The translations under genes were made by a program, and so were the position numbers. A model generated the notes under the pieces. That model ran no database searches. It saw only the letters and a program-made list of their open reading frames with translations, and was not told the origin of the DNA. From Mycobacterium sp. (GTDB lineage Bacteria; Actinomycetota; Actinomycetes; Mycobacteriales; Mycobacteriaceae): a stretch of DNA of 64,000 bases. The stretch is from assembly GCA_020438845.1 (NCBI GenBank), contig JAGQTV010000016.1, positions 1-64,000 on the forward strand, given 5' to 3'. Positions 39,364 through 47,087 of the stretch are shown here, in pieces. Position 1 is the first letter of the stretch; each line of letters starts with the position of its first letter.

Positions 39364-40008
39364 TCACGTTGACCTCCTGTGGGCGGAGTTGCCCCCCGCC
39401 CCATAACCCAGTTGAACCAGCCGCAACCGACTGGACTCGGCACGATCCTGTTCCTCCAACTCGAGGTTGATGCGGGCCAGTTCATCGCGCAGGCGAGGCA
39501 GCCAATGCTTGCTCAACGCCCGGGCGCGTAACCGGGTGGCACGGTACTCCCGTTCGATTGTCGCCAAAGCCGCAGTCGCCACGGCATGTTCGGCGGCAGC
39601 AACCAGCGCCACCCGGTGGAATTGACTGGCGCCCAATGCCGCCGAACTCGTATAGACGACAGCGTCATCCTCGGTGGGCGGAAGCACGCACTGCACACCG
39701 TCCGGAAAGCGCACCCCGGTGGTTGTCGTCCAGTCGACGGTTATGGACGCTCGTTCGCGGGGCGTGGCGAGCGTAATCGCCCCCTGGCCACCGAGCATCA
39801 ACGCTCGCAGGTACCAGACATCAGCCTCTCGGCAGGCGGTTTCCCAGGCGCTTCGGGTGACCTCGACCCGGGCCTTCAGCCCGTCCCGCCTGCTGGCGAG
39901 CAAGCGCAGCTTCTCCTCGAGCAGCGTGACTCCCCGCTCGGCGAGTTCAAGCCGGCTCATCAGCCAGAGCCGACCCATTCGTCCTGGGGGTGTCTGAAGT
40001 GTGGGCAC
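39364..40008 (-). CDS. A/V-type ATPase subunit D (central stalk)
   Basis: Subunit D forms the central rotor shaft with F. The N-terminus VPTLQTPPGRMGRLWLMSRL followed by ELAERGVTLLEEKLRLL matches the conserved P-T/G-R...L-x-x-R-L...A-x-x-G-x-x-L-L-x-x-K pattern of the family, and the C-terminal ~50 residues form the second arm of the helical hairpin. The GTG at 40008 is chosen because it starts exactly at this motif and lies six bases after GAGGA; longer frames run into the B gene. The middle part is poorly conserved, as is normal. Length 214 residues is typical. It is the last ATPase gene, eight bases after B. Confidence 0.9.
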   Translation of the reverse strand: MPTLQTPPGRMGRLWLMSRLELAERGVTLLEEKLRLLASRRDGLKARVEVTRSAWETACREADVWYLRALMLGGQGAITLATPRERASITVDWTTTTGVRFPDGVQCVLPPTEDDAVVYTSSAALGASQFHRVALVAAAEHAVATAALATIEREYRATRLRARALSKHWLPRLRDELARINLELEEQDRAESSRLRLVQLGYGAGGNSAHRRST

Positions 40009-40016
40009 CGGATTCC

Positions 40017-41402
40017 TCAGTCCGTGGCGTTTCCGTACCGGTCCAAAAGATCTTCCGGAAGCATCGACAGTTCGCTGCGCGCCAGCCGAAGCACCACTTG
40101 CCACCCACGCGTCAAAGTCTCTGTGAGACTGCGTGTCTCGTCAGGGCGCTGGTCGACCAATTCCCGGATGAATCCATCCTGGAAGAACAGGTAACTGCGG
40201 TCGGTCGGGGTCAGCGCCTCGGTACCGATGAGCTCGGCGAGTTCGCGCAACTGCCGCGCCTTGGCGAGGGCGGCCAACAACTGAGCCGCCAGCGGAAGAT
40301 GATCCTCACGGGTACGCCCCGGTCCCGCTCCGCGGCGCATCAACCGTGACAGTGAAGACAGCGCATCGACCGGCGGGTAAATCCCGTTGAGGTGCAGTTG
40401 ACCCGAGAAGATGATCTGACCTTCGGTGATATAGCCGGTGAGATCCGGTACCGGGTGGGTGATATCGCCACCGGGCATCGTGAGGACCGGCAGCACAGTC
40501 ACTGAGCCCGGCTGTCCGGCTATCCGCCCGCAGCGCTCGTAGAGCGAGGCCAGATCGCTGTACAGGTAGCCGGGATACGCTCTGCGAGCGGGAATTTCGC
40601 CCCGCGCAGCCGATACTTGCCGCAACGCTTCGGCGTAGCTCGTCATATCGCTGAGCACCACCAGGACATGGCGGCCCTCATCGAAGGCCAAATGCTCGGC
40701 CACCGTCAAGGCGATGCGCGGGGTCAGAATCCGTTCGATGACCGGGTCGCTTGCAATGTTGAGCAACATCACCAGTTCACCTGCAGCGCTGCGGAATTCC
40801 AGAACATTACGGACGTAGGCGGCATCAGCGTGAGTCAGGCCGATACCGGCGAACACCACACTGAACGGCTCACCACCGGCTGTGGCCTGAGCGGCGATCT
40901 GGCAAGCCAGCTTCAAGTGTGGTAGTCCCGGCAGCGAGAAAACCGGTAGCTTCTGGCCGCGCACCAAGGTGGTCAGCCCGTCGATCACCGAGACGCCGGT
41001 CAGCACCGGTTCGGCCGGCGGGTCGCGGCGCACCGGATTGAGCGGATCGCCGTTGACCGAGACCATCCGCACACCGGTCACCGGAGGCCCACCGTCGATC
41101 GGTTCTCCGCGACCGTTGCACGTCCGGCCCAGCCAGCCCGCGCCCACCACGATCCGCAGCGGCTCCCCGCTGAACCGGATGCTGGTGCCGGACGTGCCCA
41201 TTCCCGACGTCCCCTCGAGGACCTGGACGACGGCGGTGTCCTCGTCGACCTCGAGCACAAGTCCGTGCCGCTGAGTACCGTCGGCCAGGGAAATCGAGAC
41301 GTATTCATCCCAGCCGACGCCGGTTACGCCGTCCACGACGGCCAGCGGCCCGCGAAGTTCCCGCACTCCGGTGAAGTCGATCCAGCTGCCGGCACCTTTC
41401 AT
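40017..41402 (-). CDS. A/V-type ATPase subunit B (non-catalytic)
   Basis: The 461-residue protein has the beta-barrel N-terminus, then GWLGRTCNGRGEPIDGGPPV, PVLTGVSVIDGLTTLVRGQK, LPVFSLPGLPHLKLACQIA in place of a P-loop, and FAGIGLTHADAAYVRN and VVLSDMTSYAEALRQVSAAR as in archaeal/V-type B subunits. The missing Walker A confirms the non-catalytic type. The end of the translation carries the conserved IYPPVDALSSLSRLMRRG region. It overlaps A by four bases. It alternates with A in the hexamer and completes the nucleotide sites. Confidence 0.95.
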   Translation of the reverse strand: MKGAGSWIDFTGVRELRGPLAVVDGVTGVGWDEYVSISLADGTQRHGLVLEVDEDTAVVQVLEGTSGMGTSGTSIRFSGEPLRIVVGAGWLGRTCNGRGEPIDGGPPVTGVRMVSVNGDPLNPVRRDPPAEPVLTGVSVIDGLTTLVRGQKLPVFSLPGLPHLKLACQIAAQATAGGEPFSVVFAGIGLTHADAAYVRNVLEFRSAAGELVMLLNIASDPVIERILTPRIALTVAEHLAFDEGRHVLVVLSDMTSYAEALRQVSAARGEIPARRAYPGYLYSDLASLYERCGRIAGQPGSVTVLPVLTMPGGDITHPVPDLTGYITEGQIIFSGQLHLNGIYPPVDALSSLSRLMRRGAGPGRTREDHLPLAAQLLAALAKARQLRELAELIGTEALTPTDRSYLFFQDGFIRELVDQRPDETRSLTETLTRGWQVVLRLARSELSMLPEDLLDRYGNATD

Positions 41403-45719: not shown

Positions 45720-46629
45720 CGTAGGCCTCCAGCGGGCTGCCGCCCCGTGCGGCGAGATGTACGGCAGCACGGCAGCGCCAAGCGTCAGCGCCCAGCACCG
45801 CAGCGGCACCGACCAGCCGTGGTCGGGCGAACCCGGTCCCGGCCACCAACTGGAATCCATCGCGTTCCACGCGGGTCCACCAGCGGGCCTCACCCCGCCA
45901 CAGGTCATCCACGTTGTGGATGTCAGCGATCGACCAGCGGGCCCGAACCGGCAGCGCCGCGATGAACGACGCAAGGTCGTCGGCGGCCATGGCTGCCGGG
46001 CCGAGGATCCGGGCGGCGCGGGCCGCCGGCTCCTCCAATAACCGTCGTCGCTGGGCGAGGTGCCTGCGGGCCACCAACAGCGCCAAAGCGGCTACCGCCC
46101 AGCTGCTGGCCTCGGGAACCGTTGTGGCGACTCGGACAGCCCAGCTGACCTGCACCCCGGCGGCAATGTCGGCGGGCGCACCACCGCCAGGATCGCCCCA
46201 CAGCGACTGCGCCAGCGCACGGCGAAGTTCGAGCAGTGAGGAGGTTTCGCGCAGCCGGGACCATGCCGTCGCCAAAGCGCCCAAATCAAACGAGGGTGCC
46301 CTGACCGCGCCTGCCAGCGCGTGGGCGTGGGCGATGATGTTGGCGGCCTCGAACCCGGCTGCCAGTGACCTGATCGCCCGGGCGCCCTCCCGAGGCTGCC
46401 AGCCCGCGAGCACTCGCAAATGCCACAGCGGAGTCGCGGCCACTGCATGTTCGGTCTGAGCTGCGCTCTGGCCGATCACGATGCCCCGGCCATAGGGGCC
46501 ATCGGCCAGAGCGTGCTGCGCATCGGCAAGCGACCCCAATACAGCAATCCCCCGGGTGCCTCCGGCCCCCAGCCGCCGGCTGAGCAGACCCTTGGCGCGG
46601 ACGCTTCCGGCGACCCATCCCGCACTCAC
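45706..46629 (-). CDS. A/V-type ATPase subunit C (d-type)
   Basis: The 307-residue, mostly helical protein sits between G and I where subunit C is expected. The repeated Ala/Leu/Arg-rich helical units, with FEAANIIAHAHALAG and LASFIAALPVRARWSIADIH, fit the funnel-shaped subunit that joins the central stalk to the ring. Sequence conservation in this family is low, so the call depends partly on position. It overlaps G by four bases and I by 14. Confidence 0.8.
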   Translation of the reverse strand: MSAGWVAGSVRAKGLLSRRLGAGGTRGIAVLGSLADAQHALADGPYGRGIVIGQSAAQTEHAVAATPLWHLRVLAGWQPREGARAIRSLAAGFEAANIIAHAHALAGAVRAPSFDLGALATAWSRLRETSSLLELRRALAQSLWGDPGGGAPADIAAGVQVSWAVRVATTVPEASSWAVAALALLVARRHLAQRRRLLEEPAARAARILGPAAMAADDLASFIAALPVRARWSIADIHNVDDLWRGEARWWTRVERDGFQLVAGTGFARPRLVGAAAVLGADAWRCRAAVHLAARGGSPLEAYDALV

Positions 46630-47087
46630 CCTTGCGTTGCCCCGCTCTGACTTTGAGTCGCTTGGTTTAGCAGCTCCCGTGCCTCGGCCACCACCTTGTC
46701 AACATAGGCGGCCATTCGAGCGTCCGCCCGCTTCTGGAGTTCTGCGATGTCGGCAGCAGTTCGGGCCCGGACGTCATTTCGCGTCGCCGCCGCCCGGCTA
46801 CGGGCTGTCGCTTCCGCCTCCGCCCGCACCCGTTCCGTTTCCGCGCGTGCCCGCGCAACCGTCGAATCGGCTTGTCGACGAGCGGCGTTGCGGACTTCGT
46901 CGGCGTGCGCGGCACCCTCGCGCCGGATGCGGGCCGCTTCGTCTTGAGCATCATCGAGAAGTTCCAGGAGCGGAACCAGTTCGGCAGCCGCGTCGCTGAC
47001 CCGATCAGCGGGAACGCCCGGTCGCCCGGCGGACCCCGGCGCGCCGGTGGGGCGGAAGCGTTCCAGGAAGTCGCGCCACTGCGGCAT
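46626..47087 (-). CDS. A/V-type ATPase subunit G/H (peripheral stalk coiled coil)
   Basis: The 153-residue protein has residues ~45-145 as one continuous coiled coil (DDAQDEAARIRREGAAHADE, then many Ala, Glu and Arg heptads), as in the G/H stator subunit. The first gene of the operon, it starts at ATG 47087 after GAGGAGGG. A -10-like element is seen at 47107-47112. In other bacteria this gene also stands at the head of the operon. Confidence 0.82.
   Translation of the reverse strand: MPQWRDFLERFRPTGAPGSAGRPGVPADRVSDAAAELVPLLELLDDAQDEAARIRREGAAHADEVRNAARRQADSTVARARAETERVRAEAEATARSRAAATRNDVRARTAADIAELQKRADARMAAYVDKVVAEARELLNQATQSQSGATQG

What the first reader, a model, noticed from the sequence alone, without database searches (positions are those of the whole stretch)
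39364..47087. Complete nine-subunit A/V-type ATPase operon in a mycobacterium-like genome
All subunits G-C-I-K-F-E-A-B-D are present, with catalytic motifs, essential ring Glu and stator Arg intact and start/stop overlaps throughout. Mycobacteria are known for relying on an F-type ATP synthase, the bedaquiline target. A second rotary ATPase could be a proton or sodium pump and would probably not share the drug site.
Basis: partly seen in the sequence, partly recalled or inferred. Interest (0 to 1): 0.7.

Follow-up and report, generated by a model that had tools for sequence, protein, structure and literature searches.

The report
Mobile second rotary ATPase, short-armed stator
A mycobacterium carries, besides its normal ATP synthase, what looks like a complete second rotary proton pump of the archaeal/vacuolar type that is rare in its genus, has moved between species, and lacks half of the arm that normally anchors such motors.

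Summary
Confirmed: window 39364-47087 (minus strand) encodes a complete V/A-type rotary ATPase, order G-C-I-K-F-E-A-B-D. Subunit C escapes sequence models; its predicted fold matches Thermus subunit C. The genome also has the F-type operon. The operon is rare (11 of 396 same-genus genomes). Two lineages exist in the genus (one clade rejected, AU p=1.5e-5), in conflict with the F-type tree: G182/G054 share 97.6% in A+B but 87.7% in F-type; G000/G182 66.5% and 92.0%. Some copies lie beside arsenic-type genes or transposases. dN/dS shows purifying selection. The ring subunit keeps its Glu but lacks the Na+ ligands: H+ predicted. The new point is subunit I: the coiled coil and distal stalk-binding lobe of the stator arm are missing, the proximal lobe remains. 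From N- to C-terminal profile match it spans 417-467 residues in 6 of 6 clade loci measured, against 635-736 in 11 of 12 others. I infer a compact, horizontally transferred proton-translocating V/A-ATPase, possibly with one peripheral stalk instead of two. Stalk number, direction and physiology are untested. F- plus A-type enzymes in one genome are common, so this is a new variant of a known kind.

The parts
46626..47087 (-). subunit G (peripheral stalk), 153 aa
   Evidence: ORF; weak hits to F-type b; found at the same place in 19 of 21 clade loci
45706..46629 (-). subunit C (rotor socket, d-type), 307 aa, too diverged for AC39 models
   Evidence: No Pfam hit; AF2 pLDDT 92.8; 17 best Foldseek matches are V/A- or V-ATPase entries, probability 0.97-1.00, TM by query length 0.50-0.68, 6 with E <= 0.001
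44274..45719 (-). subunit I (stator, half-channels), 481 aa; one-lobed cytoplasmic arm, residues about 16-150
   Evidence: PF01496; PDB profile hits; AF2 model and VIA-align; internal deletion
43855..44280 (-). subunit K (ring), 141 aa, two N-terminal hydrophobic segments (judged by eye), then one hairpin with the Glu
   Evidence: PF00137, 58 bits on the longer ORF 43855-44316; alignment A4
43635..43853 (-). subunit F (central stalk), 72 aa, shorter than usual
   Evidence: Profile hits to V-type F chains; 70-76 aa in 21 loci
43114..43638 (-). subunit E (peripheral stalk), 174 aa
   Evidence: Profile hits to V-type E chains, behind one designed helical bundle
41399..43123 (-). catalytic subunit A, 574 aa, P-loop GGFGTGKT
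   Evidence: PF00006, PF16886; NF003220 over cut-off
40017..41402 (-). subunit B, 461 aa
   Evidence: PF00006, PF22919; NF003235 over cut-off
39364..40008 (-). subunit D (central shaft), 214 aa
   Evidence: PF01813, 81 bits on the longer ORF 39364-40104

Best explanation
The operon makes a working, proton-translocating V/A-type rotary ATPase, an accessory enzyme that Actinomycetes exchange horizontally. A3B3 turns over ATP, the D/F/C axle transmits rotation to the K ring, and protons pass between the ring Glu and the arginines of subunit I. The stator arm of I keeps only its proximal lobe; the coiled coil and the distal lobe, which in Thermus bind the second EG stalk, are absent. The enzyme is therefore compact and may be held by one peripheral stalk. 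Since the mycobacterial F-type enzyme makes ATP but hardly hydrolyses it, the most useful role of this second enzyme would be ATP-driven proton export or pmf upkeep under stress. Shown here: gene content, selection, conflict of trees that transfer explains, missing lobe, missing Na+ ligands. Inferred: H+ use, pumping direction, stress role, single stalk.
For: Subunits. Order and junctions. Selection: dN/dS 0.055-0.49 in 32 of 33 gene pairs, the exception being F of L022/L023 at 0.71. Transfer: trees and AU test, identity contrast and 13.7 kb at 92% shared by G182 and G054, arsenic-type genes and transposases nearby, Streptomyces and Embleya plasmid copies at 60-64% in A. Missing lobe: with the AF2 model showing a single alpha/beta lobe and 427 of 649 residues of Thermus I aligned, rmsd 7.6 (6ly9_N). 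Two lobes bind two EG stalks in Thermus: PMC7367684 (passages). H+: with the rule of PMC11738941 and ligands in PMC2359735 (passages). Slow F-type hydrolysis in mycobacteria: PMC10049701 (passages).
Against: No expression, activity or stoichiometry data. The sequence rule for H+ is indirect, and the Gln position was aligned by eye. The stalk number is not fixed by the arm: a second EG pair could bind V1 without an arm lobe. A shortened arm is also seen in one distant locus, L091, so it is not unique to the clade. The stress link rests on neighbours (Usp and/or CBS genes in 7 of 24 loci examined); the ten window flank ORFs scanned show neither and the tblastn found none in the window; no DosR-like box stands out before the operon. 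The host tree is from one F-type locus.
Confidence: 0.8

Rival explanations
1. An ordinary two-stalk V/A-ATPase: the second EG stalk binds the head only, or the proximal lobe holds both, and the short arm has no mechanical consequence.
For: One E and one G gene, as in two-stalk enzymes (the comparison is recalled). A 531-aa I exists in another lineage, L091, so arm shortening may be tolerated.
Against: In Thermus each lobe holds one EG stalk (PMC7367684, passages). The distal lobe is missing in 11 of 11 clade members aligned with full-length subunits, and I is short in all 20 complete clade copies.
Confidence: 0.5
2. A Na+ pump, like many A-type enzymes of bacteria.
For: ProAD predicts more Na+ than H+ A-type enzymes (4,927 vs 4,199; PMC11738941).
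Against: K has Gly after the Glu (AEG, not ES/ET) in 18 of 18 rows and Ala at what I read, by eye against L111, as the helix-1 Gln position.
Confidence: 0.12
3. Vertical descent from an actinomycete ancestor with massive loss, not transfer.
For: The window lineage (7 of 11 same-genus copies; group support 90/83) is sister to Nocardia-type copies (95/95), as the organisms are (recalled).
Against: Two lineages in one genus, clade rejected; G182/G054 identity contrast; none of 21 flank ORFs of the window found near the copies in ten same-genus loci of 12-20 kb, some with short flanks.
Confidence: 0.07
4. Contaminating contig in the assembly (2.41% estimated contamination).
For: Draft genome, 118 contigs.
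Against: The 75-kb contig carries a gene pair next to the operon (47252-49938) that is adjacent in 10 of 10 same-genus loci fetched, GC is 0.63-0.69 throughout 34000-52000, and a single-contig genome of the genus carries the operon too (G054).
Confidence: 0.03

Closest known systems
Thermus thermophilus V/A-ATPase
   Same: Same nine subunit kinds (recalled for Thermus); C and I folds match; H+ enzyme; catalytic A alignable to residue 540
   Different: I is 652 aa in Thermus chains against 481 here, with two lobes for two EG stalks there; F 72 aa here against 100-119 aa in the V-type F chains matched; gene order differs (recalled)
Chloroflexi V/A-ATPase, e.g. L044
   Same: Same order (103-aa gene)-C-I-K-F-E-A-B-D; similar K with N-terminal extension; A 46% identical
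   Different: I 654 aa, F 101 aa, C recognised by PF01992 at 220 bits
Enterococcus hirae V-ATPase
   Same: I is the best PDB sequence match (8wci_P, 1.7e-31)
   Different: Na+ pump with full ligand set (PMC2359735, passages); I 672 aa
F-type ATP synthase of the same genome (contig C83)
   Same: Rotary ATPase in the same membrane
   Different: Different family; genes a-c-b-(b-delta)-alpha-gamma-beta-epsilon (b, gamma and epsilon named by position); motif around the ring Glu differs

Membership tests
V/A-type (A-type) rotary ATPase | Catalytic A with the V/A-specific insert domain | tested here: met
   PF16886 57 bits; NF003220 over cut-off
V/A-type (A-type) rotary ATPase | B, D, I and K subunits | tested here: met
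   Pfam over gathering scores; D, I and K are below the NCBIfam cut-offs
V/A-type (A-type) rotary ATPase | Subunit C (AC39/d) as axle socket | tested here: met
   By fold only; sequence models fail, hhalign to the C of L044 38.7% probability over 103 columns
V/A-type (A-type) rotary ATPase | E and F subunits | tested here: met
   Weak profile matches: F, 11 of 12 hits V-type F; E, V-type E at 4.2e-5, second after a designed bundle
V/A-type (A-type) rotary ATPase | G subunit | tested here: inconclusive
   Position and make-up only; weak F-type b matches
V/A-type (A-type) rotary ATPase | Stator arm of I with proximal and distal lobes | tested here: not met
   Distal lobe and coiled coil absent; typical of the enzymes studied, but taken here as a variant, not as a ground for exclusion
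V/A-type (A-type) rotary ATPase | Two peripheral stalks (used for classification, PMC6131620, passages) | not testable with these tools
   Stoichiometry needs a purified complex
Na+-translocating A-type ATPase | Full Na+ ligand set in K (Gln, Glu, Ser/Thr) | tested here: not met
   Glu present, Ser/Thr and Gln not (Gln position by eye)
F-type or N-type ATPase | F-type a, gamma and delta genes in the operon | tested here: not met
   Seven of the nine genes are recognised as V/A kinds by sequence and C by fold; only G has weak F-type b matches

The most novel reading that the evidence does not exclude
Actinomycetes pass around a minimal V/A-ATPase whose stator has only the proximal lobe and therefore a single peripheral stalk: an A-type motor built on the F-type stator plan, which breaks the rule that stalk number (1, 2, 3) separates F-, A- and V-ATPases, and which gives carriers an ATP-hydrolysing proton pump that their one-way F-type enzyme does not provide.
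Probability: 0.4. Interest if true: 0.65.

Novelty: new variant of a known kind. Interest (0 to 1): 0.48.

Why it matters
Peripheral stalk number is used to sort rotary ATPases (PMC6131620, passages); a natural clade without the second attachment lobe lets the need for two stalks in A-type motors be tested. Mycobacterial ATP metabolism is usually discussed as resting on one F-type enzyme; a transferable second rotary ATPase in 11 of 396 sampled genomes of the genus is a fact to know there.

Tried and rejected
DosR-type control: the best box-like site before the window's operon scores 11 of 20; of 500 random stretches of the window, 468 score 11 or more (consensus recalled). Empty site: ten relatives with the right-hand gene pair were fetched, but the left-hand methyltransferase is rare (5 of 118 genomes, this one included) and was not found beside the pair in any of the ten, so the insertion ends were not defined. 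rpoB as host marker was given up because PF00562 found nothing in G000 (25 of 29 genomes matched); the F-type genes used instead are one locus, not a genome tree. Other V/A types exist in related organisms and are not in this clade: L186 from the same order and plasmids of Pseudonocardia and Rubrobacter at 47-48% in A. Papers: searches showed no study of this operon in the rows listed (one search listed 20 of 561 papers, 15 of 222, 10 of 33); the Nocardia seriolae genome paper lists a KEGG V-type module only (PMC5336288, passages). Most subscription papers are not held. Phage-labelled records with distant A genes (16 records, 5 listed) were not followed. Subunit I length taken as longest ORF does not separate the clade (444-665 aa in L037-L042, because the frame runs open into C); the claim rests on the aligned span and on start codons nearest the end of C. 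L077 is cut by a contig end, L080 is an over-long ORF, L091 is a real second short arm. A B-subunit alignment failed and was not repeated.

Full report
What is there. The minus strand of 39364-47087 carries nine genes in the order G-C-I-K-F-E-A-B-D. A, B, D, I and K are recognised by Pfam, and A and B pass the NCBIfam V-type cut-offs. E and F are recognised weakly by clade profiles against solved chains. Subunit C is invisible to sequence models: no Pfam hit, no PF01992 hit in the genome, no V-type hit in the PDB profile search, and a weak hhalign match (38.7% probability, 103 columns) to the C gene of L044. Its AlphaFold2 model is confident (pLDDT 92.8); its 17 best PDB matches are V/A- or V-ATPase entries, read by me as subunit C or d from titles and chain letters, probability 0.97-1.00, TM by query length 0.50-0.68, 6 of them at E <= 0.001. 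G is assigned by position and make-up.

The host and its other ATPase. The genome (G000, 4.53 Mb, 118 contigs) also has an F-type operon: a, c and a fused b-delta by Pfam, alpha and beta by PF00006, b, gamma and epsilon by position. Its c and alpha match closely solved chains that I recall as mycobacterial.

How common. A V/A-specific domain (PF16886) was found in 11 of 396 genomes of the genus, this one included; in 7 of 397 drawn from the order (6 of 85 genera), of which two are in this genus and one, G640, has a different V/A type; and in 95 of 396 drawn from the phylum, where the listed hits other than this genome are marked only as same phylum. F-type alpha was found in 11 of 11 carriers (in G182 only part of the domain, in G325 at a contig edge) and beta in 10 of 11, not in G325 (alpha and beta told apart by position). 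Nine subunits in the same order were found in 19 of 21 clade loci; L027 is cut by its contig and L040 has no detectable G. Streptomyces and Embleya plasmids carry relatives at 60-64%; one record shows nine genes in the same layout, three of them annotated as hypothetical.

Transfer. In the A+B tree (28 rows) the same-genus copies form two groups: seven, including the window (support 90/83), next to Nocardia-type copies (95/95), and four (100/100) elsewhere among other Actinomycetes. Holding the 11 together costs 98 log units, p-AU 1.5e-5. The F-type tree of the hosts disagrees. G182 and G054 have 97.6% identity in A+B but 87.7% in F-type alpha+gamma+beta; G000 and G182 have 66.5% and 92.0%. 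G182 and G054 share 13.7 kb at 92%, which includes an ArsA-type ATPase and a flavoprotein; G385 has a transposase gene on each side and a P-type ATPase. None of 21 window flank ORFs was found in ten same-genus loci of 12-20 kb; five further loci in that search were about 3 kb, too short to count. The F-type genes are a single-locus proxy for the host tree, and the tree tool flagged long branches among the non-genus rows.

Selection. dN/dS between four pairs is 0.055-0.49 for 32 of 33 gene comparisons, and 0.71 for the 74-aa F of L022/L023. The three highest values are all F.

Ion. K has the Glu in 18 of 18 rows, followed by Gly in 18 of 18, and Ala at what I read by eye as the helix-1 Gln position. 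By the published rule that a site lacking any Na+ ligand counts as H+ (PMC11738941, parts 1 and 2 read; ligands from PMC2359735, passages) it is predicted to use H+. Around the Glu, K reads GLAEGIAIYG where the own F-type c reads GLVEAAYFIN, so a shared drug site is unlikely, by inference only.

What it may do. Mycobacterial F-type enzymes synthesise ATP but hydrolyse it very slowly (PMC10049701, passages). A second enzyme that runs in the hydrolysis direction would let a cell export protons or keep its pmf without respiration. Universal stress or CBS-domain genes lie in 7 of 24 loci examined (23 clade loci and L186; two loci have both; the queries came from two of the seven), against 1 of 10 mycobacterial loci without the operon and 0 of 73 distant V/A loci, the last a weak control because of distance. 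The window gave no hit, and no DosR-like box stands out before its operon. The stress role is a suggestion.

Known or new. F- plus A-type in one genome is common, 890 bacterial genera in ProAD. In the rows listed I found no paper on this operon; three of those lists were capped. The enzyme is a member of the V/A family by its parts; the distal lobe of the arm is the one typical feature that was tested and is absent. It is best called a new variant of a known kind.

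Noticed in passing
own genome C21:109273-109518 (L031:5274-5519): An orphan second F-type c subunit (81 aa, PF00137), nearly identical to the operon copy in the helices; PF00006 has no match on that contig.
   Followed up: partly
L091:5872-7467 (uncultured bacterium RUG12186): A complete 531-aa subunit I in a distant lineage with a shortened arm that seems to lack the distal lobe but keeps coiled-coil-like sequence: perhaps an independent loss.
   Followed up: partly
L020, L021, L026, L182, L240 (Usp); L039, L182, L184, L240 (CBS): Universal stress protein and CBS-domain genes recur near the operon in several genera.
   Followed up: partly
own genome G000: PF00562 (rpoB) finds nothing although the genome is rated 99.78% complete; gap or withheld stretch.
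   Followed up: no
phage collection, e.g. MT835471.1, OR846741.1: Records labelled as phages hold V/A subunit A genes at 41-44% identity; perhaps bacterial DNA in phage records.
   Followed up: no
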